A stretch of DNA of 64,000 bases from Acanthococcus lagerstroemiae (Eukaryota; Arthropoda; Insecta; Hemiptera; Eriococcidae). The DNA lies in assembly GCA_031841125.1 (NCBI GenBank), contig CM063108.1, forward strand, positions 5,253,683 to 5,317,682. Reading direction: 5' to 3'. The notes beneath the pieces were generated by a model. That model had not been told where the DNA came from. It did no database searches and saw only the letters and a program-made list of their open reading frames with translations. Made by a program: the position numbers and the translations under genes. This document shows positions 2,779 through 56,072 of this stretch, piece after piece. Position 1 is the first letter of the stretch, and every line of letters starts with the position of its first letter.

Positions 2779-3251
2779 CTTCTTCTTCTTCTTCAAGTGC
2801 CGTATCTAATGCCGGACGTTGGTGATCGCAGTTTCTGGCTCGCGATTTTCCTGGGCAGGATTAGTCGGGGTAATTTGCCGTTGCCTTCCCCACAGGTTTG
2901 TGAGTCTTTCCTTCTCTGTGCCGAAGAGTATGCAGACGCGACTCAGTTTGCTTACTAGCTACATGTTTCACGACGTTGAGTTAGCCGTCCACGACTTTTC
3001 GCGCACAGTACCAATCTTTATGATCTGGTGATGACACACCCTGCAATTATTGTTATGCCTTATTTGTTCGAACTGGCGAGGTTACAAAATGCGCTATCTT
3101 TCCACCTCGATTGACTCTGTAGTTGCTGTGTTCACTAAGATGATGGTGGGGGTATTCAAACATCACCAGCTTTCCGGCTTTAATGGGACTCGAACCCGAG
3201 ACGCAAGTATTGCGAAGCGGGCACGTTACTACTATGTCACACAGTGACCCC
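2779..3251 (-). mobile_element. tRNA-derived SINE, family B, near full length
   Basis: Read on the minus strand, the element starts with a tRNA-like head (about 3251-3175) ending in a good RNA polymerase III B box, GGGTTCGAGTCCC. A roughly 300-base body follows, then a 3' module with AACTGCGATCACCAACGTCC and CGGCACTTGAAG, and a tail of GAA repeats. The 3' module is found again at 49835-49953. The plus-strand flanks share TATGTGTA (2759-2766 and 3252-3259), consistent with an eroded target-site duplication. The 473-base length is long for a SINE. The anticodon arm pairs poorly, so this is a SINE head and not a working tRNA gene. Confidence 0.75.
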
Positions 3252-3679
3252 TATGTGTACATAAATCATTCAAAATTTAGCGCCGGCTGTAACTAGTTTT
3301 TTTTTTTAAATGTACTTTGCCCAGCGACGACAACTATTTTGGGTTAGTTTTTTCCATTTATCGACTTTTGGTCGCCTTCAAATTTTACAGTTCTTAGCAG
3401 TTGACTATCCTGTCTGTTGTATAGAATCTGCGCTATGCATTTCAATACAGTTTTTATATTGTCACATCAGTAACTTGAAGTATCGCGTAGGTCCTGTTTA
3501 CGCGGGTAAGATTAAAATTATCGCAATACGGAGTGCCACACAGATAGTTAGTACGTCAGCAGGGTACTCCAGATGAGGCTCTAAAACGAAAATTACATTC
3601 ATCGTTTTTATGGAGCTGTTTACGACAATCGTGTATATATACCAGATGCCGGAAATACAATTCCGGATTAGAGAAATTC

Positions 3680-3966
3680 CAGGGTGTCTACTGGCCTGAA
3701 AAGCCATGGTTTCAAAAAATTACCCAAACTCGAAAAAGTCATGATATTTCATCATGTCCAATATTTCCATTACAAAAAAAAAATCAATTAATTCATATAA
3801 TGAGAAAAAAATATTGAGCGAATATTTATTATGTAAGCTTAACGCGCTCCGTGTTGAGCCCCTGGTGAGGCGCGGAGCACCGAGTTTGCCCCCCCCCTTC
3901 CATTTGCTTCTTATATTCCCCATGATAGTCATGATATTTTGTTTCCCAAATCCAGTAGACACCCTG
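3680..3966. mobile_element. MITE with CAGGGTGTCTACTGG inverted ends
   Basis: The left end CAGGGTGTCTACTGG (3680-3694) is matched perfectly by the reverse complement of the right end (3952-3966). Total length is 287 bases with no coding content. The ends resemble those of the 286-base element at 23359-23644 and the 2.7-kb element at 24572-27281, so the three are probably one superfamily. GAAATT lies close to both outer edges but not in exact register, so the duplication is unclear. Confidence 0.75.
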
Positions 3967-5219
3967 AAATTTGCGGGCAAACAGCATGTATGATTTCGAT
4001 GTACAACCGTCTAAAGTTGACCGTGGGAATGTTTGCGCTGTTGACCCTGCGACGTCAAGGGTCATCTCGATCCGTATCGGGCTGCAACAGGCTTGAGAGA
4101 ATTGTTGGACAAATCGCGAACGGTGATAATGAGTCAAGTTACAGAATTCATTCGTTAGAAGAATTGAAAAGTATGTAGTTTGATCTTGACATATGTATAT
4201 GTTTAATTTGAGACGATCAGTCCCCAAACTGATGATTGGAACACCTTGGCGACCTGTACGCGGAAGGTGAAGATTGAAATGGTTGCATTCACGAGTAGAT
4301 AGGCGATTATAGTATATTCAACAACCCAGACAATTTTGTCGTGGAAGCAGCAGTAAGAAGTAAATCTTAGCAAGTCAACTCAACCGCATTGGTACTCTCG
4401 CATGCCGAAAATACTTGCTTGTTTTCGAGTTTATGACTTTACGCGTCGTAGCCAGGTCATTTCGGATCTTTTGGGGTCGTTTTCTCTCCCTCCTTTGTAA
4501 GCGGCGGCGGATCACCGAGTGTGTTGTAACTAATCCACATCGCAACAGCCAGCTGCAGAATATACGCGCTTTTATCGTGCATATAGGAACGTGTAAAAAC
4601 GAAAAATGGAAACGTTCGTCACCGCAGTGAACTCGACCGAAATCTCACCCCGTCGAGGTCTTAAATCCGGACGACTTATTGCCGGGCACACTTGCGACGT
4701 ACTCGTCACCGTCCGCGGCCTCTCAATCACCCGAATCAACTTCATTCTTTCCACATGGATGCGGCTGTACCCTTACGATGAATCACGATATACTCGTACT
4801 ATATTAGGTACTCAGTAGGTTTACTTCTCTTTTCGCCTTCGGTAGAAGCTACAGCTGCTTTCCACGTCCTGCCCTAACTGGATACCGATTCACCCTATGA
4901 CCCAGCGTCTGCAACGCTTCCTGTAGAGTCACAAACGAATTTTGAACAGTTTTAGCGAGGTGTAAGTAAGTTTGGAAGAGCCGTTAGACTTCGAAGAGTC
5001 CAAGAGATATTTACATGCAAGAATGTCTTACCATAAGCGTAGCGTGAACCAAATGATTGGAGGAGGAGGAGTCGACATTTTTCCTAGTGAAGTGAACAAA
5101 TGAACTTTTTAGTCCCTCTACTCTCCATCTTTTTACTCATAAAAATACACATGGGGTCCGGGCTTTCCTGGTCCTGTGACGCTATGCCTATGTTGTCCAC
5201 CTGTTTAAATCTTGATTTA
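3967..5219. other. Unrecognised sequence, no assignable gene
   Basis: No repeat or mobile element is recognisable. The part around 4440-4800 is richer in CpG than its surroundings and contains a 70-codon open frame (4606-4818, plus) with no motif I know. It could hold a host exon or regulatory DNA; there is no firm evidence for either. Confidence 0.3.
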
Positions 5220-17190: not shown

Positions 17191-17758
17191 GTAATCTATT
17201 TGTTTTGTGGCGGAACTGTGAAACTGCGCTTGTTGAATCACTTAGTTATGTATCACTTCGATTCATCCCATCAAATTGAAAAAATATAAATTTAAAATTT
17301 AAAAATGAATAATTTTTTTGGGGGGGGGGGGGTTTGCCCAATACTTTGATCCTACTGTGATTTTACTTTCAAAAGTTGAGTCGTGTATTGAAATACAGTT
17401 CTTTCAGATGGCATTATGAAATAATGCATAAGACTTTTCATTTATACCTGTTATGGGCTTCAAAATTATAAACATCTGTATTACTTTTTTCAATAACTGA
17501 ATCCAACTTGACTTGCAAAATTGAGCCGACAATCACATTAGGGTATTTTTGGCGCGTTTTTGGAATATTTTAATCCAGATTTTCATCGTGCACGGATTTG
17601 AATCCCACATTCAATATATTACCATATAAAGAGGTAAAATTGTCTCGGGTGGGGGGTTGTTGATTTCGAATATCGCTTTATATCTTTAATTTAGCCCTGA
17701 TTTGAACTCCAACATCAACATTTTGCCAATCCTTATTCTTATATTCTCTTTGATAAAG

Positions 17759-17970
17759 GTCTGGTTGGCCGAGTGGATAGCGCGCTGGTCTCGGAATCCG
17801 AAGGTCCTGGGTTCGAGCCCACGTAGCAACTCGCTCCATTTCGACCGAGGACGATTTTTTGGCAAGATGATAAGAGGGCTAAGATAGCTCTTACAGCCTC
17901 CCCGACCTCTCAAAAGTAATGCTCGAAAGGGCGGATTCCAGGTCTCGGGTTGAGAGTAAAATTAGAAAAG
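17759..17970 (+). mobile_element. tRNA-derived SINE, family A, copy 1
   Basis: It begins GTCTGGTTGGCCGAGTGG, which contains a good A box, followed 40-odd bases later by the B box GGGTTCGAGCCC. The body includes CAGCCTCCCCGACCTCTC and AATGCTCGAAAGGGCGGATT and ends ATTAGAAAA. Three more copies lie at 33152-33355 (plus), 37413-37630 (minus) and 41230-41421 (minus). Length is about 212 bases. The head resembles a tRNA, but the acceptor and anticodon stems are imperfect, so it is not a working tRNA gene. Confidence 0.9.
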
Positions 17971-22640: not shown

Positions 22641-22765
22641 AATTAGTCTCAAGAGACGAAAAATAATGGAGGCAATGCCAACTAAATGGCAGTTCAGGTG
22701 TAGGAAACTATAGTAGGCTGGAAAGAAAGCTAGGGAGCTAAATGGCAGTTCATTCTGAGGCAACT
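22640..22765. repeat. Short local duplication, CTAAATGGCAGTTCA
   Basis: CTAAATGGCAGTTCA occurs twice about 57 bases apart, and a third, weaker form (GCTAAATAGCAATTAG) lies just before. It adjoins the truncated end of the minus-strand LINE. Confidence 0.5.
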
Positions 22766-23745
22766 AATAAGTTAGGTTAGGAGCATCCTTTGAGGCATCC
22801 TACTACAGCTCAGTTACTTCTACTCATTACTCCCGTTCCTACGGTATTAATAACTCAATTTCACCGAAAAAGTGACTTACTTGCTTCTTTCCCTGTACCT
22901 TTCAAATTGTCTGTTTCGTTTCTTGGTGATCCTATCGGAGGTTCCTATGTCCATTTCAGTTCATTGTTTTTTAAGAAGAATTTATTTAATTGTTCTTGGT
23001 AGTCTACTAGCTTGTCCCCATTTATGTTTCTTTCCCCATCCGTATTCCCTAATACTTCTTGATTGATCGTCCCCCTTCCCCACCTCGGAATTCCAGTCCC
23101 CTATTATTATAGTACTCTCCCACTTTTATTATTGTTTCTTCCAGCTCTTTCTAGAATTTTTCAGTGTTTTGTTCTTCCACCCCCATTGTTGGGGCGTAAA
23201 TTTTAATTATTAATATTTTGATTTTTTTTTGTGACCTTTATTTTCAGCAGGTAAATTCCTTCCGAGATCCCTTTCGTTATTGTCATGTCTTTTTTTATTT
23301 CTGAGTTGATGTAAAACCCTACCCCGTATGTCCCTTCGTTTGTCCATATTGATAAACAGGGTGTCGATCGATACGGGAAATCCGGGAAATGTACAGGAAT
23401 TTCAGGGACTCGGGAAAAATGCGGGAAATATACGGGAATTTCAGAAATTTCAGAATCGATACGGGAAATTGGCCTAAGCAATCGATGCTGCTACCAGCGC
23501 GCCGCTGTGCCTTGCTATAATATAAAAATAAACTTCTGAAAACCCAAAATTACCTCCCCAATAACTTGAAAATATACGGGAATTTCGTAAATTTTAATCC
23601 GGGAAATATACGGGAATTTTATTTCAAGCCTCTGGTCGACATCCTGATAAACAAGGTGGCCGGATTTTTTATCATTTAATACTTCCCCTTCTTTTCTAAT
23701 CTCTGAAAGTCCGATAATATCTCATTTGATACCCTCTATTGGTCT
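22755..23745 (-). pseudogene. LINE ORF2 apurinic-type endonuclease domain remnant, split by a MITE
   Basis: Reading the minus strand downward from about 23745, the frame gives DIIGLSEIRKEGEVLNDKKS and GHLVYQ. It is then interrupted by the element at 23359-23644. It resumes with YGVGFYINSEIKKD, GISEGIYLLKIK, IYAPTMGVEEQNTEKF, GDWN and finally NKFFLKNNELKW. This order (GLSE, G.GFYIN, IYAPT, GD.N) is that of the endonuclease domain of non-LTR retrotransposons. Frame changes and stops show decay, and no reverse transcriptase follows below 22755. ORF1 of what is probably the same element lies upstream at 24285-28520 in three pieces. Confidence 0.8.
23359..23644. mobile_element. 286-bp MITE inserted in the LINE endonuclease
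   Basis: Ends are GGGTGTCGA and, inverted, GGATGTCGA. The 9-base sequence TGATAAACA flanks both sides (23350-23358 and 23645-23653). Removing the element and one copy joins the LINE frame across VYQ/YG, so the insertion is unambiguous. The interior repeats ACGGGAAAT and GGAATTT words many times. A 9-base duplication and GGG ends suit a Mutator-like (MULE) origin. The CAGGGTGTC ends link it to 3680-3966 and 24572-27281. Confidence 0.88.
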
Positions 23746-24284
23746 CTCAAATTCATGTACCCTGTACTTATACCAGACTCCTACAATTAAAGTGTAGAAG
23801 GTTGAGTTGGAATTCGCTTTGTTGTCCACTTTTCTTGCTTTTTAGAAATTCATTAGAAATACTTATTTTATGGGATACGGAGGTAATGCAGAACCCCCCC
23901 CCCCCGCCCCGCCTTCCGTTGCTGCAACTTATATTGTGGAAATGTTGGAGTTTGGCTCACTACACCAATGATCCGTGCCACTTACATGCTACTCTTTCCT
24001 TGCTGCTGTTCCCTGTAATCATGCTGTCCTCTTGGTGTCATTGTTGATTTCGCTGGTACTGCTTCCATTCGGTTGGTCTAGAGAACATAGGGAACTTTTC
24101 CATGTGGTCCGCTGATGCTGATGTTGTGTTGTAATTTTTTCTACCTTGCTCGTTATCTGAATTTTCTTATTAACGCTGACTGTTTTGTCCTGTGGGCTGC
24201 GCTGTTCTAGGGTTCTTTTGTTCCTTTTCTCCCTGTCTTCTTGGTCTTTGGTCTTCGGTATGTTTTTCAGCTCGTCTATATTTT

Positions 24285-24571
24285 TTATTTTGATGGTATA
24301 GATTTTCCCTCCCTTTTTCTTGCTAGTACGTCACCATTCCCCGTCTTTACAAATACGATTGTCCCTTCGTCACGACATATTTTGGTTTCTCTCAGTATTT
24401 CCTTGCGTTCTCCATTGAAGTGTTGTCGATTTATATTGGTGACCCCCTCTATCGCTAATTTTTTTACTTTACCTTTCTTTTTGATGTTGTTCTTGACCTC
24501 ATTGTTGCTAAGTTTTACTATAATTCCGGGTGTTCTTTTCTTTCCTCCAGTCCGTGAGCCGTATATATACA
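24285..24571 (-). pseudogene. LINE ORF1, C-terminal part
   Basis: The minus-strand frame reads IYGSRTGGKKRTPGIIVKLS, then ILRETKICRDEGTIVFVKTG and a basic end NGDVLARKREGKS. A pattern of PIIV.L followed by L.ET.K...G.I.FV...G.VL.RK is that of the RNA-binding C-terminal domain found in ORF1 of many non-LTR elements and in baculovirus FP-like proteins. The start is cut by the Mutator-like element at 24572-27281; the frame continues on its other side (27285-27386). A roughly 500-base stretch of broken frame links it to the endonuclease below. Confidence 0.7.
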
Positions 24572-27281
24572 GGGTGTCCATTCTCTGGAAAATCTGGAAA
24601 ACCTGGAAAAGTCAGGGACTTCTGGAATTTTCAGCATTTTCCACCTAAAAGTCAGGGAATTTTGTGAAAAAATCGACTGCGAAATTCTGTAGTATGTCAA
24701 ACAGATTTTACCCCATTTCTTATTAAAAAAATTTTCCTGAGCGAACTCGTATCTTTTTTCTTTCACAGGAGAAGGGAGGGCGTGGGTATTACAACTCCCT
24801 CTCCTATCGCAGTAGTAGATACAGAGTGTGATGGTGTGATGAAATCGTTTTCATGGTATTTGTTTCGCGTCTACATCTTTCTATTAAGGCTGCTATACAC
24901 TTAAATGTATTTTGTGACTTTTCATAAACCATTTCACGAAAAATATGACGAAACGCGAACCAATCCCTATACACTTCTCCCAATATCAGCTGTTTCGTGT
25001 TTTCATCTCAGTTTGTTCGCGAGAATTAGAAAATCAGCGCGAAAAGACGCGAAAATGATAAAATATTCGGTCTAGCTTCTCTCCCTAGTGTAATGATTTT
25101 TTTGAGAAAGTCGTAATGAAACGAAAATTTAAAAGCCAATAAAGTTACCTTCTGGGACATCCTGCCATCGGGTTTTTCTTCGTTCCTCTCGCCTTCGCAA
25201 ATGTAAATAAGGGTGAATGAAAGGCACTTCCGAGATTTTGGGGCTAGAGTAATTAATCCACAAGATTTTAAAAAAATCTAAAGACTGCATGATAATTATT
25301 ATCGCGTTACGAATGAGTCCATTGTTTCCAGATATATGACCTTATATTGTATCTGTCGATACTCTTAAATTGAAGCCTCTTCCGCCCCCCCCCTGGTGCT
25401 ATAATTTTCCAGATCCTAACCACCTTTTTACTTTCATAGCATTTGTCGTTAGATATGCTGCAGCTTTTTCACCTGGGTTCTAGAATTCATTTTAATAGTT
25501 ATTTTCCCTCGGCATGCACTTATCAGCACGCAAAAAAAAAAAAAGAAAAGTGCATGCAATATCGACAGTCACAATGAAAAAGACAAATGAATGCAATTAA
25601 AAAACAGGCCTCACGAAACGAAAATTAATTGAATGCAAAAAGTAAATAATAATTTATACTAGTGAACGTAAAAAATTTACTGAGTTAAGAAAGCCTTCTT
25701 CGCTTTCGCAGGGTGTCCTCTTTTAAGTTTCTAACCCAGAGGAACATTTTTTGCAGTGACCGGTACGTCGACTACTTTTTGTTTAATAAGTATGCCTAAC
25801 CTGTGCTTACAAACGTGTTTCTTCAGAAAAATGGAGCACGAGCAACTCGAATCAGTAAGCTGCTGCACTGGGTTTAGCGTTAGAGACCAAATGCTGTATC
25901 GGTGTTCTTTGAAACTATCCCAACGTTTTCCATGTACCCTCCAATTTTTATGCTTAGCCAGTAGTGTCGGTGTCAATGGTTTCTTGCAGGTCACTGACCC
26001 AACGAAGTTCTGCGTGAATCCATATGTGACGTCGAGGCTGTTGAAATACCGGTGTATTTGCTGAAGTCCAATGATAATAGCCGACGTCCACATCTTATGG
26101 ATGATAAAGTCTCGTCCCAAACCTTGTCGCTCCATGTAGGTACTTGATTAATCAGTCAGTTCTCTGTCTAGCTAGCTGGTCACCGGGTTCTCACAAACAT
26201 GAGCATGTTTACACCCTCAACCTAGAATACCTATTTACACATCTGTTTTTTTTTCTTCATTTTTTTACATTACGTGCACGTTCCTGTCCTCTTTCGTTAA
26301 TATTTCTTTTCAATTTCGTTGTTCCACTTTTCCTTTTGCTTTTTCCTGTTTTGCGTGCAAAATCTTTTTTTCAAGCGTGCTGTTATATTTTCCCCTTTCT
26401 TTCTCCCTAAACCATTTAGGCTGCACGAGGGAGGGGCTAATTCCGGTTACTCTAATTTTCCTCAAGTTTCAAATTCTTTACGAGATTCTAAGGTCAATTT
26501 TTTGGACAGGATAGCCAACCAAGCTCTGTGTCGCTGATTTGAATATCGCCTCAGATTTTTATACGACCCCTTCCAGAGTACTGTCATAATACCAATTCAA
26601 CTTCTTCGACGAAAAATTGCGCGAAGTGTCGAAATAGGGGTGATTTTGTGTCGCTGATTTCGAATATCGCTTCCGATTTTTAATCTGGACCAAATTTAAG
26701 CTCCTGTGCTTTTTCAGTTGAGAAATTTTTATGACGTTATTTTGTTAAGCAACACTTTGAATAAATAAAACTGTATTTTTACTTTATTCGGTGGCTTTAA
26801 TTAGAAAGGGTGAATTCCGAGTCAACCGTTGCTTGTCCTACGCTCTTGCTACCTCATTGGTCGCACCAGGAGGGACAGGATCCAAAAATGACCCCTAAAA
26901 TCGAATACAGCGACCTCGAAAACCTATAAACGAATTTTCGAATTTTATTCTTTCATCCCGCCCCTTCACGGTTGGCATTAAGTCGTACGAAAAAAAAATC
27001 TGTGAAGTCGTTAATTGACATCGCACCACGCTGCAGCCCATAGAGCGCGTCTTTATTTCTATCATTAAATTTTTACACCCCCTCTGCCACAACTTCATAA
27101 GCATACGGTAGTAAAAAAAAAGTTTGTGGAGTGATTGATATTCGCCGCTCACGATGTTCGAAAAAATTTGATCCCCCCCTGCATGTGTAATTTGTATTTG
27201 AAGGGTCTGGAAAAGTGAAAAAATTGGCCTGGAAAACCTGAAAAAGTCAGGGAAAATCATTTCCGAACAAGAATGGACGCC
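24572..27281. mobile_element. Mutator-like DNA transposon, 2.7 kb, decayed
   Basis: The left end CAGGGTGTCCATTCT (24570-24584) is mirrored by the right end read inward, CAAGGCGTCCATTCTTG (27284-27268). Just inside both ends lie GGAAAA/CCTGGAAAA/AAAGTCAGGGA words. The two outer flanks are consecutive parts of one LINE ORF1 (KEYEIY on one side, IYGSRTGG on the other), which shows these are the two ends of one insertion. The flanks are AT repeats, so the exact duplication cannot be read. Inside, on the minus strand, is a SWIM-domain transposase remnant (25663-26135). A fuzzy GATTTCGAATATCGC repeat lies at 26510-26700. Confidence 0.75.
25663..26135 (-). pseudogene. SWIM-domain transposase C-terminal remnant (Mutator-like)
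   Basis: A minus-strand open frame of 134 codons ends in RWDSFKEHRYSIWSL, then a SWIM zinc finger with C-x-C and C-x-H (SSCSCSIFLKKHVCKHRLGI), then VPVTAKNVPLG. A TAG stop follows, but the frame continues KLKRGHPAKAKKAFLTQ to a second stop; this basic K.KRG.P.KAKKA tail is the usual end of this family, so the TAG is a premature stop. SWIM fingers close to the C terminus are typical of Mutator-type transposases and of arthropod proteins derived from them. The catalytic DDE part is not recognisable. Its place inside inverted ends supports an element-borne gene. Confidence 0.78.
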
Positions 27282-27284
27282 TTG

Positions 27285-27386
27285 ATATATTTCGTATTCC
27301 TTCAGTTGCAAACCCATTTCTCTTTCCTTCGCGTTCCTCCTTTGAGCTTGGGATCCCATTCAAAATAATATTATTTTTCCTGCTAT
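27285..27386 (-). pseudogene. LINE ORF1, middle part between two insertions
   Basis: About 100 bases of minus-strand coding remnant read NNIILNGIPSSKEER, then shift frame to GLQLKEYEIY. RKNN..LNGIP is the usual junction after the coiled coil in LINE ORF1 proteins. It is the short bridge between the plus-strand LINE (27399-28280) and the Mutator-like element (24572-27281). Confidence 0.65.
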
Positions 27387-27398
27387 ATTTTCCTGTCT

Positions 27399-28280
27399 AA
27401 TCATCTGAGATTTGCTAATGATATTGTTATTATAGGGAAAAGCAGCAGGGAGCTTGAAGCAATGGCGGAGGATTTGAGGAGAGAGAGAGCAAAAACTTTG
27501 GTCTAACAATAAACTACGATAAAACCAAAATTTTGACCAATATCGAACACTTTGATCAGATTAGCATGGAGAATAACAATATCGAAATAGTTAAAGATTA
27601 TAAGTATCTTGGCCAAAACATGACCATAGAAAATAGAACTAAAAACGAAATCAGAATCAGGCAAGCCAATGCCTGGAAGGCGTTCTGGCCCTAAAGGGAT
27701 ATTCTTAAGGGGAAACTTTAATTGCAATCTAAAATAAAAATACTTGAAAGTACTGTCTACCCGGTACTGACCTACGGGGCGCAAACGTGGGCCTGTACTA
27801 ATAACCAAATGCATAAAATGGAAACAACGCAACACGCCATGCTAAGGAACATATTGGGCATAACATTAAGGGACAAAATCCACGTTTCGGAATTGTTCAC
27901 CGAAACAAAAACTAAAAACATTGTCATGATCATCAAAAAGCTAAAATTTAACTATGCAGGGCATGTTGCGAGAGAAGTCAGGTTGAAATGGAACGGAGTT
28001 TCCACTTTGTGGACCACGGGTGAGGGAAAACGCAAAGTTGGGAGACCATCGAAAAGATGGGTAGATGAGGTGATCGCGATGGCCGGCCCCAATTGGGCAC
28101 AGAAGGCCGCAAACAGAAAAATTTGGTTAGATTTGACCAACGCTCATACCCAGAACTGGGTGGCTGGGTGAGGAACGAGACCAACTCCCCTCACGAACCT
28201 ATCGACTCGAAGTAACTATTCCGTCGATTTCGTTCCGCCGAGCCCGCGAGCTTGTAATAAAATAATTTAAAAAAATAATA
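27399..28280 (+). mobile_element. LINE fragment (reverse transcriptase C-terminal half) with 12-bp duplication
   Basis: It begins inside the reverse transcriptase at the catalytic box, LRFANDIVIIGKSSRELEAM; FAND replaces the usual F/YADD, so the second box residue needed for catalysis is altered. It continues GLTINYDKTKILTN and DYKYLGQNM, then, after a stop at about 27692, an open frame of 149 codons (27722-28171) with VYPVLTYGAQTWACT, NILGITLRDKI, GHVAR and GRPSKRWVDE, the standard post-RT region. It ends with an A/TAA-rich tail. ATTTTCCTGTCT flanks both sides (27387-27398 and 28281-28292). It is a 5'-truncated, dead insertion into the minus-strand LINE. Confidence 0.9.
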
Positions 28281-28292
28281 ATTTTCCTGTCT

Positions 28293-28545
28293 TCCAGACT
28301 CCGAGATAGGTTTCCATTTTCGCAGCTCAGCATCGCCACCTCCTCCTTTAGTTCTTCATTTTCGTCTTTGAGTATCCCTAGTCGTGCATTAATGTTTGAT
28401 ATATCGTTCTTATTAATGCTAGCTACTTCACTTTGGGTGACCCTCTACTATCTGCTTTATGTTCCTCAGCTCCTCCAGAATAAGTCCTTCCTCCTGACAT
28501 ATCTGGTCCGGATACCGAATGTATCGATTGCATATGTACTAATAC
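28293..28545 (-). pseudogene. LINE ORF1, N-terminal coiled-coil part
   Basis: On the minus strand, EEGLILEELRNIKQIVEGH and, after a frameshift, GILKDENEELKEEVAML and NGNLSRSLEDRK form a heptad-rich, Glu/Lys/Leu coiled coil. Removing the plus-strand LINE and one duplication copy joins SLEDRK to the NNIILNGIP stretch at 27386, as expected for a LINE ORF1. A plausible start lies near 28538. The element therefore ran from about 28545 down past 22755 before it was broken. Confidence 0.65.
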
Positions 28546-29735
28546 TGTTCTTGTTACCGCTTGCTTTTCACTGGTCAATTCTTGCGCATAAAAACTGAAC
28601 CGTACGTAACCCGTTGCACGCGAAAACTCACGTTATCTTTCTTGTCTTATCTTGACCGAACTCTTCTTGTACAACCCAAATCAGTAAGAAAACCTCAGAT
28701 AAGACGTCCATTTGAAAAATTTTCGAACCCCGTCGCAATTTCCTTTCGGTACGTTCTTGCCTCCACCGGTTCGTATTTTTCTCTGATTTTGCACGCTACT
28801 CTTCATCTGATGCTGCGAATACAAGCATGAATTTGCTATTTGCTACGTACCACCAGTGTATGCAGCCCTGCACAGCCTTCGGAGAGCTCATCTTGCGATA
28901 CTCGATACCTGTACAAGTCGGCCGACTATCATCATCGGAATTAGCGTGCTCGTGATCGCGTCTAATCACGCGCGTAATTAGACCAGAGTCCTAATTACGG
29001 ATTAGCCAACTAGGCGTTTTCCGTATTTATTATTCGCCGATATGGTCGTCCGTAATTGCAAGGCGGCTTCCGGCCACCCCATCGACGTATACGCGACCAC
29101 GAGACCGACTACTAGATAATGTGCGAGCTTTTATCATGGGCGGCGGCATCGGGCTCGCCGGGCTGGTTACCGACGGACAAGGTAACGTCGTCATTAAGAC
29201 TCACCTATGGTGATTCTCTGCTGTTATTGTTGTGTCGTTTTCCTCTCTGTTTCTCTTCCTTTCATCGCATAGGTAGGTGTACATATTCGGATCCGAGTAA
29301 CAGAGCAGCAATTTACCGGCGAGAAAACGCGAAACTTGTGATCAAACGCGTGCACAGACTGGTGTTGGAAAAAGAGAAAAAAATGATAAAGTAAAATCGA
29401 AATCTGCCCTAAATACGACAAATAGTAGAAAGCGTGTGGGTTTCGGCCGCCGCGAGACCACGGCGAACCCTTTTTCTCGGTAAAGCGGGAAAAAGCATTC
29501 GAAGTGACCGACTGACCATCGACACAGTCATTTTAAAAACTGTATTCGAATAGCTGTACTCGAAAAAAGAATGAAGCTGAATTAATCAGCCGAGAAGAAT
29601 ACGGAGAGTCGGTACGACCACTTACAGCTCATTTGAAATTCAGCCAAGAAAAAGCGATCGCTAATATTTATTAAACAGACGGATGAGTTATTTCGAGAGC
29701 AAAATCGATTTAATTGCGCCGGCCGGTACGCGTAT

Positions 29736-32844: not shown

Positions 32845-34440
32845 GCATTGTATGCGCCATGTGCTCAGACCTTGTAGTCCATTGCACTTTTTCTCAAGTT
32901 CGCTCTGTAGCCTCACTTTTACAGTCAATGTGAGAATTTTACTGAGTTCTATCCATTTGACGCATCAATGCTTCGTGTCTTGTCCCGGCTATTGTTGGGC
33001 ACTGACATATGATGTGATTCGAGGTTTCTGCCTCTTCTCCACAGTGCCTACGGGAGCTGCTTTTCGCCATTTCTATTTTATACCACGTGTGTTTTGTAGC
33101 CCCGTGACCAATTAGTAGTCCGACCATGAGAATTGCATGTCTTCTGTCGAGTCGTAGTGGATAACGCGCTGGTTTCCGAATCCGGAGGTTCCGGGTTCGT
33201 GCCCACGTAGCAACTCGCTATATTTCGACCTGGCTCGGTTTTTCGGTAAGACGAGACGAGGTCTAAGACAGCGCGAACGGCCTCCCCGACGTCTCTGAAG
33301 TAATGCTCGAAAGGGCAGATTCCAGGGCTTGGGTTAAGAGTGAAATTAGAAAAGATGAGCCCTACCTAATAAGAACTCAGCGTACTTACCAGGGGCGTCC
33401 CCTATCAGTGCTTTGCTCACTTTAATACTACTGACCATTCACTAGTGCATTTCCATCTGCTTCCTTATACAAACCTTCATCTTGGATTTTATGACGATGC
33501 TACAGGAAGACACGGCCTGGGCGTTGCCTGTTCCTTTTTTATGCCCTCCTTTGCTAGCTTGTCAGCTTTCATGTTCCCTTTTATGCCGCAGTGCCCCGGC
33601 GTCCATAGTATAGTGAAATGGTTGTCCTGAGTATGGGTGTATAATTTGTTAATGCAGGCCGCCATCACCAAGGATGTAGTTTGGTATCCCAATAGTGCTA
33701 CAAGCTGTTTGTCTATTTTGTAGAAGTATTGATCTGCTTATTAACAAGGATCTTCGGCTGGCTTCTATCAACGGCCACTGTGATCGCCATTACCTCTGCT
33801 TGGAATATAGTGACGCCCGCACCCGGTGGCAGCACTGAGTAGTTGTCAGCGCCTTCTGCATTCGTGATTCCGATTCATACCCCTTGATTATTCTTTGAGG
33901 CATCTTCACACTGCACAAGCTCCTCTTTTTGTAGAATGCTTGCCACCTCTTTTCCCGTGCCTCCCGTGTATCAGTGCACAGTATGGCTTGTCAAAGAAGT
34001 GTTCATCCGCGATTCGGTCCCTCGGCATCCCAAAACATTTGTCCATCTTCCCCACCATCTCCCATATTCTTCCATGACCTGTTTCTCGGGCTCGGAGGTT
34101 TAGTTGGCCCAGATGATAAACCCCCGTTATTGCAGCTGCTTCCATAGCAGTGTGAATGGCGGCAGTTTTAGAAGTCTCTTAAATGCTTTTGTCGGCTCTG
34201 TTTTAATTGTTCCCGTCGTCATCACACTCGCCAGCCTTTGCAGGTGGTCCAGTTCCTCCCTGACTTTGGCCAGGCGGACCTGGCCCCAGCACACATCTGT
34301 CGCGCATGTGATTCTGGGACGTACTACACTGGTATATATCCAGTGCATCAGTTTAGGAGAGAGTCCCCCGGTCCTGCCGACAAAGATTTGGCAAGCTTAA
34401 GGAGCCTCAATCCCTTTGAGCATATTTGCTGAGAATTTCT
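32845..34440 (-). pseudogene. LINE with RNase H domain, 3' part, decayed
   Basis: Minus-strand pieces in order: HWIYTSVVRPRIT with HLQRLASVMTTGTIKTEPTK (post-RT region, 34348-34127), a bridging frame with NLRARETGHGRIWEMVG (34145-33906), then HFTILWTPGHCGIKGN and MKADKLAKEG (the C-terminal part of an RNase H domain, about 33630-33530). After an interrupting SINE come LDRRHAILMVGLLIGHGATK and a zinc-finger-like C-GE...H-C ending (HCGEEAETSNHIICQCPT). RNase H after the reverse transcriptase marks clades such as I, LOA and R1-like elements. Frameshifts make it inactive. The 5' end is truncated near the minisatellite. Confidence 0.8.
33152..33355 (+). mobile_element. SINE family A, copy 2, nested in the RNase H LINE
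   Basis: Starts within the A box region (GTAGTGGATAACGCGCTGG), then B box GGGTTCGTGCCCACG, CGGCCTCCCCGACGTCTC and AATGCTCGAAAGGGCAGATT, ending ATTAGAAAAG. The first dozen bases of the head are missing compared with copy 1. LINE coding sequence continues on both sides, so the SINE inserted later, in antisense to the LINE. No target-site duplication was recognised. Confidence 0.85.
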
Positions 34441-34494: not shown

Positions 34495-36125
34495 TCGGAA
34501 TCACATCTCACATCGCTTCACGCCCGCTAACAAGTTGGTGACTCGACACGGTTTCAACATCGCTTCGCGCTCGCTGACCGGTTCATGACCAGGGCATGGA
34601 TTTATATGTAATCACTTTTTTTTTTTTCTGTTGGCCTAGAGGAGATATATCCAATACCCTTTTCCGTTTCAGGTTTTTTTGAATAAAATGAGCCCAACTT
34701 TATTTTGCATATTTGGTCTAAACGAGCATATTTTAGCCACTTTTCGCCCATATTTAGACTATTTCAACATATTTACCTAATTTTTCTATTTCTAAGCACA
34801 TCTTCCGCCGCTTTCACGTTTTTTTCTTTAGCACACGTTGAAAAAAAGTACGGGAAAAAATGGAATTGTGGATTCCGTGTCCCTATGCTACACTAGCTAA
34901 TTTTTACAACTAATGTTGTTTCAGGCACGCGTTGATTCGTATCGATTTTCTTATCTAAAATAAGTTTCTTTAAAATTAGCATAAAATATTGTCCATTATG
35001 GAACATGTTTCTTCTGGGTCAAAAATGTCAGCCATTGTGACGTTTGTTTTCTAGTTACAAAATAAATTTATCAATACGTTGAACTGGTTCACCTTAATTT
35101 GAAATATAACTCTTTTCTCCCGTTTCTGTATCTTTCTCTTGTATGTTGTCCTTTAATAGACACACCACATCGAGCTCTTTAAAATGAGACCCATATTGTT
35201 TTCGCATATTTTGCACGTATTTCAAAAAAAAAATTCATATAACGTATTTTTAGCGCATAATATAGTTATGCGCACATTTCTAATTTTTAGCGCATAATAT
35301 ATGCGCATATTTTTAATTTTTAGCGCATAATATATGCGCATATTTCTAATTTTTAGCGCATATAAATCCGAGCCCTGTTCATGACTCATTGGGACCCCAA
35401 CATCGCTTCATGCCTGCTAACAAGTTCGTTGACTCGTCAGGGTCCCAGTATCGCTTCACGCTCCCTAACAAGTTTGTGGACTCATTGAGACCTCAACATT
35501 GCTTCACATTTGCTAAGGAGTTAGTGACTCATCAGGATCCGAACATCGCTTCTCGTCGGCTAACGAGTTCGTGACTCGTCCGGGTCCCAACTTCGCTTCA
35601 CGTCCGCTGACAAGTTCGTGACTCATCAGGGTTCCAACACGCTTCATGCCTGCTAACGAGTTCGTGACTCGTCAGGGTCCCAGTATCGCTTCACGCTCCC
35701 TAACAAGTTTGTGGACTCATTGAGACCTCAACATTGCTTCACATTTGCTAAGGAGTTAGTGACTCATCAGGATCCGAACATCGCTTCTCGTCGGCTAACG
35801 AGTTCGTGACTCGTCCGGGTCCCAACTTTGTTTCACGTCCGCGGACAAGTTCGTGACTCATCAGGGTTCCAACATCACTTCATGCCTGCTAACGAGTTCG
35901 TGACTCGTCAGGGTCCCAGTATCGCTTCACGCTCCTTAACAAGTTTGTGGACTCATTGAGACCTCAACATTGCTTCACATTTGCTAACGAGTTGGTGACT
36001 CATCGGGATCCGAACATCGCTTCACGTCTGCTAATGAGTTCAGAGTTTGTTATTCATCGAGGTCCCAACAGCGTGTTTCACGCCCGCTGACGAGTTCATA
36101 ACTACATTGCTTCACGCCTGTGAGG
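34495..36125 (+). repeat. Minisatellite, about 47-bp unit with 235-bp higher-order period
   Basis: The basic unit is near CAACATCGCTTCACGCCCGC, then TAACAAGTTCGTGACTCATC and AGGGTCC. Two units lie at 34495-34589 and the rest at 35378-36125, separated by a hAT element. Within the right block a set of five units recurs almost unchanged: the word GGGTCCCAGTATCGC starts at 35440, 35675 and 35911, giving periods of 235 and 236. Units within a set differ much more from each other than the same unit does between sets, so recent growth was by whole five-unit blocks. Confidence 0.92.
34590..35377. mobile_element. Non-autonomous hAT element, 788 bp, inside the minisatellite
   Basis: The left end CAGGGCATGGATTTATATG is mirrored by the right end read inward, CAGGGCTCGGATTTATATG. 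The 8-base duplication TTCATGAC is perfect (34582-34589 and 35378-35385) and lies in the minisatellite unit, so the array was cut by the insertion. Near the right end TTTTTAGCGCATAATATATG-type subterminal repeats occur three times (about 35249-35368). CATATTT words repeat near the left. No transposase frame is present. Confidence 0.93.
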
Positions 36126-37412: not shown

Positions 37413-37630
37413 CGGTTTTCTAATTTTGCTCTCAATCCGAGCCCTGGAATCCGCCCTTTCGAGTATTACCTCAGAGACGTCGGGGAGGCTGTCAGGGCTG
37501 TCTTAGCCCTCTTCTCTTCTTGCCGAAAAACCGGCCTAGGTCAAAATGTAGCGAGTTGCTATGTGGGGTCGAACTCGGGACCTCCGGATTCCGAGACCAG
37601 CGCGCTCTCCACTCGGTCAACCAGACCCCT
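37413..37630 (-). mobile_element. SINE family A, copy 3, with 15-bp duplication
   Basis: Read on the minus strand: GGTCTGGTTGACCGAGTGG, B-box region GAGTTCGACCCC, ACAGCCTCCCCGACGTCTC and AATACTCGAAAGGGCGGATT, ending AATTAGAAAACCG. The flanks are AAGGAGATGTAACCT (37398-37412) and AAGGAGAGGTAACCT (37631-37645), a 15-base duplication with one mismatch. This defines the full SINE length as about 218 bases and shows LINE-type insertion. Confidence 0.95.
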
Positions 37631-41229: not shown

Positions 41230-41421
41230 TTTTCTAATTTTGCTCTCAACCCGAACCCTGGAATCCGCCCTTTCGAGCATTACTTCAGAGACGTCGGGGA
41301 GGCTGTTACGGCTTTCTTAGCCCTCTTCTCTTCTTGCCGAAAAACCGGCGCGAGTCGCTACGTCGGCTTGAACCCAGAACCTCCGGATTTTGAGACCAGC
41401 GCGCTATCCACTCGGCCAACC
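41230..41421 (-). mobile_element. SINE family A, copy 4
   Basis: Minus-strand reading: GGTTGGCCGAGTGGATAGCG, GGGTTCAAGCCGACGTAGC, ACAGCCTCCCCGACGTCTC and AATGCTCGAAAGGGCGGATT, then AATTAGAAAAAG. Compared with copies 1 to 3 about 15 bases are missing between the tRNA-like head and GCCGGTTTTTCGGC. No target-site duplication was recognised. Confidence 0.9.
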
Positions 41422-41689
41422 AAGGTTACTTCAAAAATCTCGGCACCTATAGAAAATGAAGAATATGTCTTGAAACAAAAATTGTTCGCACCGTATTTAC
41501 TATAAAAATGGTTACTTGTACTTTTTTCATATATAACCTAAAAAAAACCTTAACAGTTGGCTCAAAATAACTCTTGTAAGCAGTACATACTACACACAAT
41601 ACACATTACTACAGGCCTACATTTTTCTTTGTTTGTAACATTTCTTACTGAACTACCTATAGTAGGTAACTAGGTATCTAAAAGGTGAT

Positions 41690-55479: not shown

Positions 55480-56072
55480 TGTCATGGGGCTAACAACATT
55501 GAAATAAGAAGAGCTCAACTTACTGGAGAGGCTGTTGTACAACTAAGCCGTATTTGGAAGAGTCATGATACCAGGAAGAGAGACACGAAAATCAAAATGG
55601 TACAGACATTGATCTTCCCCACCGTGCTTTATAGAGCTGAAACTCGGACATTATGGAAAGTCGACCGAAATAAAACTGGGCCGCTAAGAACTCTGGATCT
55701 GAAGAAGGCTGCTTCGTGTGCCGTGGACAGCAAAGAGAACCAATGTGTCCATTGTGGATGTGATAGGAAGCACTGAACGGTTAAGCTCTATATGTACGCT
55801 TAGTTGAAATATGTATTTTGGTCACATCATGAGACTGGAAAATGACTATCTTGAGAGGCTGGTTATATATGGAAAGACAGAGGGTAGGTGGCTCCGTAGT
55901 CGTAGCCCAGTGAGGTGGACCGACCATATTTGAGACATATATGGAGAGCCAGTCCATGTTGTCGCAAAAAAAACACAAAAAACAGAGGACCGGGAAAAGT
56001 GGAGAAATTAAGTTGCAGCTCCGCCGGTATAGCTATGATCGGATCGATCGGCACTTCAAGAAGAAGATATCG
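55480..56072 (+). pseudogene. RTE-like LINE, 3' end
   Basis: Plus-strand pieces: IRRAQLTGEAVVQLSRIWKS, IKMVQTLIFPTVLYRAETRT, then in other frames YFGHIMRLENDYLERLVIYG, KTEGRWLRSRSPVRWTDHI-like text and a short basic end. This is the C-terminal region after the reverse transcriptase in RTE/BovB-like and related insect elements (LIFP..LYG.ET.TL, FGHIMR, GR...RW.D.I). Several frameshifts. It ends with GATCGGCACTTCAAGAAGAAG, very like the CGGCACTTGAAGAAGAAG end of SINE family B. Confidence 0.75.

What the first reader, a model, noticed from the sequence alone, without database searches (positions are those of the whole stretch)
22755..28545. One LINE broken by three insertions whose order can be read
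A minus-strand LINE (ORF1 coiled coil, ORF1 C-terminal domain, ORF2 endonuclease) is cut by a plus-strand LINE fragment (12-bp duplication ATTTTCCTGTCT), a 2.7-kb Mutator-like element and a 286-bp MITE (9-bp duplication TGATAAACA). At each break the LINE protein text continues on the other side, so each empty site can be inferred. This gives a relative chronology and an unusually clear test of element boundaries.
Basis: partly seen in the sequence, partly recalled or inferred. Interest (0 to 1): 0.75.

Follow-up and report, generated by a model that had tools for sequence, protein, structure and literature searches.

The report
Old LINE broken by four insertions
A decayed copy of a jumping gene in an animal (probably insect) genome was later hit by three other mobile elements, one of which was itself hit by a fourth; the order can be partly worked out, but every piece is of an ordinary kind.

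Summary
The core observation is right. A minus-strand LINE (ORF1, then endonuclease) is cut at three places. A paralogue in the same genome (L107) holds the LINE pieces in the same order without these inserts (at the plus-LINE site only 16 nt of one flank align). ORF1 and endonuclease pieces also align in order to one related two-ORF element.

Three details change. (1) The MITE's target duplication is 5 bp (ATAAA), not 9: of 19 copies with both ends, 10 have exact 5-bp repeats, none exact 9-bp ones. (2) The 2.7-kb "Mutator-like element" is two elements: a 1.83-kb element with 5-bp duplications, cut by an 885-bp element with 9-bp duplications that carries the SWIM finger. 14 of 15 fetched copies join directly across the inner site. 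Only the inner one looks Mutator-like. (3) The three inserts are not nested in one another, so their order cannot be read from the map. Copy-specific divergence suggests LINE first, then the 1.83-kb element (inner one inside it), last the plus-LINE and the MITE, unresolved.

This is ordinary nested-transposon history. The LINE's reverse-transcriptase half was not found in the window.

The parts
28281..28659 (-). LINE, 5' part: start of ORF1 with coiled coil (decayed)
   Evidence: DNA match to L107 2170-2532; ORF1 of L106 residues 38-83 at 28429-28280, weak (E 0.005, sensitive run)
27399..28280 (+). Insertion 1: 5'-truncated LINE fragment of another family, from the FADD box of the reverse transcriptase to the end of ORF2 plus A-rich 3' end; 12-bp duplication 27387-27398 / 28281-28292
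   Evidence: 65% identity to ORF2 protein P0005 over residues 752-976 and 75% over 725-756; 39 other places scored in the genome at 84-94% identity
27285..27398 (-). LINE ORF1 piece between the plus-LINE and the 1.83-kb element (KYSRKNNIILNGIP)
   Evidence: L107 2926-3038; ORF1 of L106 residues 87-105 at 27390-27334, 74% identity
24570..27284 (.). Insertion 2: apparently non-coding DNA transposon, 1.83 kb without its inner insert (24570-25510 plus 26396-27284); ends CAGGGTGTCCATTC / GAATGGACGCCTTG; 5-bp ATATA at 24565-24569 and 27285-27289
25511..26395 (-). Insertion 4, nested in insertion 2: 885-bp element with SWIM zinc-finger ORF; ends GGGGAAAATATAACAGC / GCATGCC; family shows 9-bp duplications
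   Evidence: 14 of 15 fetched copies of the outer element join directly across the site; among the 111 matches only the window itself covers the middle; family of its own; boundaries good to 1-2 nt
25731..26147 (-). ORF of 138 aa with SWIM zinc finger (PF04434)
   Evidence: E 4.9e-05, above the curated cut-off
23647..24569 (-). LINE: ORF1 C-terminal part, inter-ORF stretch and start of ORF2 endonuclease
   Evidence: L107 3035-3926 at 77%; ORF1 of L106 residues 132-213 and 242-287, ORF2 residues 90-147
23357..23646 (.). Insertion 3: 290-bp MITE, ends CAGGGTGTCGA / TCGACATCCTG; 5-bp duplication ATAAA at 23352-23356 and 23647-23651
22831..23351 (-). LINE ORF2 endonuclease, C-terminal part (decayed); DNA homology ends at 22943, protein homology near 22831; reverse-transcriptase half not found

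Best explanation
A two-ORF LINE inserted on the minus strand, lost its 3' (reverse-transcriptase) half and decayed. Three unrelated insertions later landed in it: (i) an apparently non-coding 1.83-kb cut-and-paste element with CAGGGTGTCC ends and a 5-bp target duplication; (ii) a 5'-truncated LINE of another family, inserted by target-primed reverse transcription with a 12-bp duplication; (iii) a 290-bp MITE with CAGGGTGTCGA ends and a 5-bp duplication. Element (i) was itself hit by an 885-bp SWIM-containing Mutator-like element (9-bp duplication). Shown here: boundaries, duplication lengths, empty sites, nesting. Inferred: transposition mechanisms (from known families), superfamily names, the loss of the 3' half, and the order of (i) against (ii) and (iii).
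For: Paralogue L107 lacks the three inserts. ORF1 and ORF2 pieces lie in order against one related element, L106. Inner insert: 14 of 15 fetched copies join query ~931-942 to ~1827-1837 with at most 9 bp between; in the 15th (L060) query 512-1826 is unmatched and 409 bp of other sequence stands there. Duplication lengths from copies: MITE, 5 bp at 85% mean identity against 32% in cross-copy controls, 10 of 19 exact (19 of 20 fetched had both ends); 1.83-kb element, 5 bp at 73% against 27%, 4 of 12 exact (12 of 15 had both ends); 885-bp element, 9 bp at 67% against 40%, 3 of 11 exact (11 of 17 had both ends). Copy-specific divergence of the window copy: LINE 46/532 (8.6%), 885-bp element 53/829 (6.4%) and 1.83-kb element 69/1377 (5.0%), plus-LINE 27/863 (3.1%), MITE 6/264 (2.3%).
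Against: The inner 885-bp element should be no older than its host, yet shows somewhat more copy-specific divergence (6.4% against 5.0%; Fisher p = 0.18), so the dating is coarse. It is also not separable from the LINE itself (p = 0.13). LINE divergence rests on three comparison copies. The window duplication of the inner element is imperfect. At the plus-LINE site the paralogue supports only 16 nt of one flank. No autonomous partner of either DNA element was found; the searches for one did not complete.
Confidence: 0.93

Rival explanations
1. One reading: one 2.7-kb Mutator-like element, and a MITE with a 9-bp duplication.
For: The SWIM finger lies inside the 2.7-kb insert; TGATAAACA does occur on both sides of the MITE core.
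Against: Fetched copies of the outer element join directly across the SWIM stretch in 14 of 15 cases, and that stretch is its own family. MITE copies show 5-bp and no 9-bp duplications (0 of 19 exact at 9).
Confidence: 0.02
2. The LINE pieces are fragments of different LINE insertions lying side by side by chance.
For: The pieces are decayed, and none of the window's LINE pieces that I tested against Pfam reached a curated cut-off.
Against: The pieces match one paralogue in order with contiguous junctions and one related two-ORF element in order.
Confidence: 0.02
3. The plus-strand LINE fragment belongs to the same LINE family as the broken one.
For: Both match the same broad group of ORF2 proteins.
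Against: Its reverse transcriptase is 65% identical to P0005 but only 28% to that of paralogue L107; its genome copies are 84-94% identical to it and numerous (487 first-look candidates, 40 scored), while the query 23645-24571 of the broken LINE has 10 candidates.
Confidence: 0.03

Closest known systems
Two-ORF LINEs with an AP-type endonuclease and an ORF1 with baculovirus-FP-like domain
   Same: Relative L106 has PF25298 (E 7.9e-08, above cut-off) in ORF1 and PF03372 (E 3.2e-11, above cut-off) in ORF2, plus weak sub-threshold matches to other families in the N-terminal part of ORF1; window pieces align to it in order
   Different: Window copy is decayed and no reverse transcriptase was found; clade name (RTE-like) is recalled, not tested
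hAT5 (hAT DNA transposons with 5-bp duplications, as named in PMC12730594, passages read)
   Same: 5-bp duplications for the MITE and the 1.83-kb element; CAGGG ends fit the hAT end pattern (recalled)
   Different: No hAT transposase linked to them; no long ORF seen
Mutator-like elements (MULEs), e.g. Phantom with 8-10 bp duplications and SWIM or FLYWCH fingers in some (PMC6446971, passages read)
   Same: 885-bp inner element: 9-bp duplications, SWIM finger, GG-rich ends
   Different: No DDE transposase domain found in this short copy; weak terminal inverted repeats
Transposon interruption analysis (PMC2517846, title and start of abstract seen in the listing)
   Same: Uses insertions of one element into another as evidence
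   Different: Here a single locus

Membership tests
LINE (non-LTR retrotransposon), broken minus-strand element | ORF1 followed by ORF2 endonuclease in one element | tested here: met
   Order against L106 and L107
LINE (non-LTR retrotransposon), broken minus-strand element | Reverse transcriptase downstream of the endonuclease | tested here: inconclusive
   Not found for this copy; present in paralogue L107
hAT5 (1.83-kb element and MITE) | 5-bp target duplication | tested here: met
hAT5 (1.83-kb element and MITE) | hAT transposase in an autonomous partner with the same ends | not tested
   PF05699 searches of the genome did not complete
Mutator-like element (1.83-kb outer element) | 8-11 bp target duplication | tested here: not met
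   5 bp in copies: mean identity 73% at 5 bp; at 9 bp 29% with control 28%
Mutator-like element (885-bp inner element) | 8-11 bp target duplication | tested here: met
   9 bp, 3 of 11 exact, mean identity 67% against 40% in controls
Mutator-like element (885-bp inner element) | DDE transposase, often with zinc finger | tested here: inconclusive
   SWIM finger found; no DDE domain in the frames tested; the PF10551 search did not complete
Target-primed LINE insertion (plus-strand fragment) | 5' truncation, A-rich 3' end, variable-length duplication | tested here: met
   Starts at the FADD box, ends A-rich, 12-bp duplication

The most novel reading that the evidence does not exclude
The MITE and the 1.83-kb element, and probably a 287-bp element at 3680-3966 in the same window, belong to one DNA-transposon group with CAGGGTGTC ends. 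For the MITE and the 1.83-kb element this goes with 5-bp duplications and subterminal repeats in direct rather than inverted orientation. The group would be very abundant in this genome and moved by a transposase not yet identified, either hAT5 or an undescribed lineage.
Probability: 0.12. Interest if true: 0.35.

Novelty: new member of a known kind. Interest (0 to 1): 0.17.

Why it matters
It is a clean worked example of how genomic copies correct boundaries read from one sequence: a chance 9-bp repeat hid a 5-bp duplication, and an apparent single element was two. Beyond that it is routine genome palaeontology.

Tried and rejected
Protein searches with the endonuclease and with the SWIM ORF found nothing at E <= 0.001 (270 and 139 candidates); only the plus-LINE reverse transcriptase did (19 proteins at E <= 1 among 987 candidates). 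Exact DNA words from the two DNA elements had no match in viral contigs. The ORF2 alignment found no relative in viral contigs and 3 loci in prokaryote contigs, of little use here. Rfam (whole window, gathering threshold), ARAGORN, NCBIfam with P0001-P0004 and PDB sequences with P0003 found nothing. A text search for CAGGGTGTC gave 25 papers; by title none of the 24 listed is about such an element (listing only). Further paper searches were made; PMC6004678 was opened and held none of the three terms sought. I rejected Spy-like elements (no duplication, recalled) because 5-bp duplications are clear. Pairwise identity as an age measure was rejected because it mixes family age with insertion age; copy-specific differences were used instead. 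The first such count for the outer element ('28 copies') had counted six genomic places twice; one search repeats it with 22 distinct places (40/853 became 40/851), and repeats the inner element without L093, a near-duplicate of L089 (50/827 became 53/829). The conclusions did not change.

Full report
What is there. Reading 28659 to about 22831 on the minus strand gives a decayed LINE: ORF1 coiled coil, ORF1 C-terminal part, then the ORF2 endonuclease. Three inserts break it, and one insert contains a fourth.

Is it one LINE? Yes. Paralogue L107 on contig C5 matches four window blocks in order: 28659-28276 at 2170-2532, 27391-27287 at 2926-3038, 24568-23640 at 3035-3926, 23363-22985 at 3908-4298, at 74-80% identity. 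Short joined flanks align to L107 across each site with gaps of at most 3 nt. The evidence is strongest at the MITE and 1.83-kb sites. At the plus-LINE site the alignment covers only 16 nt upstream of the junction, because about 390 bp of other sequence stands in L107 there, probably an insertion of its own with CAGGGTATTT...TTTAAACACCCTG ends (by eye); the 12-bp duplication and ORF1 continuity (below) carry that site. L108 and L109 also close up at the MITE site. L107 goes on into a reverse transcriptase after the endonuclease, without the stretch corresponding to P0005 residues ~212-518.

A less decayed relative, L106, encodes a 328-aa ORF1 (PF25298 Baculo_FP_2nd, E 7.9e-08) and an ORF2 start with endonuclease (PF03372, E 3.2e-11). 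Its ORF1 residues 38-83 (weak, E 0.005), 87-105 (E 2e-4), 132-213 and 242-287 (E 9e-12 together) and its ORF2 residues 90-147 and 147-228 fall on the window pieces in order, so the protein resumes at 83/87 across the plus-LINE, at 105/132 across the 1.83-kb element and at 147/147 across the MITE (two ORF1 pieces appear only in the more sensitive run).

What is missing. ORF2 relatives find, besides the endonuclease pieces, only the plus-strand fragment and a small piece at 55814-56005, and the 3' parts of L107-L109 find nothing in the window better than E 0.048. LINEs are usually cut at the 5' end by their own mechanism (recalled), so a later deletion is the likely cause (inference).

The MITE. 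The genome search gave 48 matches, the window included (33 candidates, all scored). I fetched 20 copies; 19 show both ends. Flanks agree at 5 bp (mean identity 0.85; cross-copy control 0.32; 10 of 19 exact); at the other lengths from 3 to 11 the mean is 0.33 or lower, with one exact match each at 3 and 4 and none above 5. The element is thus 23357-23646 with ATAAA on both sides.

The 2.7-kb insert. Searching the genome with it gave 111 matches (2825 first-look candidates, 40 scored): copies match query 1-941 and 1827-2715, and no match but the window itself covers the middle. Of 15 fetched copies, 14 join the two parts within 9 bp; in L060 query 512-1826 is unmatched and 409 bp of other sequence stands there. 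The middle, 25511-26395, is its own family (53 matches, the window included; 128 candidates, 40 scored) with ends GGGAAAAATATAACAGCACGC and GCGTGCCGATAAATGCATGCC and 9-bp duplications (3 of 11 exact, mean 0.67 against 0.40 in controls). It carries the SWIM finger (PF04434, E 4.9e-05). In nine loci of the outer element the longest stop-to-stop frame, flanks included, was 183 aa, and no domain search was run on these frames, so 'non-coding' is a reading, not a proof. The outer element has 5-bp duplications (4 of 12 exact, mean 0.73 against 0.27). So the outer element fails the MULE duplication test, and the inner one passes it.

Order. By nesting: LINE before inserts 1-3; outer element before inner. 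By copy-specific divergence (sites where at least 75% of other copies agree and the window differs): MITE 6/264 with 20 copies, plus-LINE 27/863 with 8 copies, outer element 40/851 with 22 copies plus 29/526 with 15, inner element 53/829 with 16; LINE 46/532 where L107-L109 all agree. Fisher tests: MITE against plus-LINE p = 0.54, outer 0.053, inner 0.008, LINE 0.0004; plus-LINE against outer 0.03, inner 0.002, LINE 1e-5; outer against inner 0.18, LINE 0.004; inner against LINE 0.13. These are not corrected for multiple testing, treat sites as independent, and compare sets of different size. The 8 plus-LINE copies are the closest in the list. The best order is LINE, then outer element with inner element inside it, then plus-LINE and MITE in unresolved order. 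Against it: the inner element looks slightly older than its host, which nesting forbids, so the measure is coarse.

Superfamily names. PMC12730594 (passages) states that hAT families with 5-bp duplications are called hAT5; the CAGGG end fits hAT from memory. No transposase was linked, so this stays a lead. PMC6446971 (passages) gives 8-11 bp duplications for MULEs and SWIM fingers in several groups, including some Phantom elements; PMC13359780 (passages) surveys arthropod MULEs.

Verdict. A real, well-supported nest of ordinary elements with corrected boundaries. Interest is low.

Noticed in passing
window 3680-3966: Another MITE-like element, 287 bp, with perfect 15-bp ends CAGGGTGTCTACTGG in inverted orientation.
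   Followed up: no
window 17758-17969, 33156-33355, 37416-37627, 41230-41422: Four related copies (80-88% identity) of a ~200-bp repeat whose start reads like a tRNA (GGCCGAGTGGATAGCGCGC...GGTTCGAGCCC): probably a tRNA-derived SINE. ARAGORN found no tRNA in the window.
   Followed up: partly
window 35377-36041: Tandem array with a 235-bp higher-order unit built from about five 47-bp units.
   Followed up: no
window 55814-56005 (+): Small further reverse-transcriptase fragment (38% identity to P0006 residues 463-521).
   Followed up: no
L105 and L106: LINE relatives with long open ORF1 (328 aa) and ORF2 (at least 641 aa): a less decayed family in the same genome.
   Followed up: partly
L107 about 2510-2910: The paralogous LINE copy seems to carry its own insertion with CAGGGTATTT...TTTAAACACCCTG ends close to the plus-LINE site.
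   Followed up: partly
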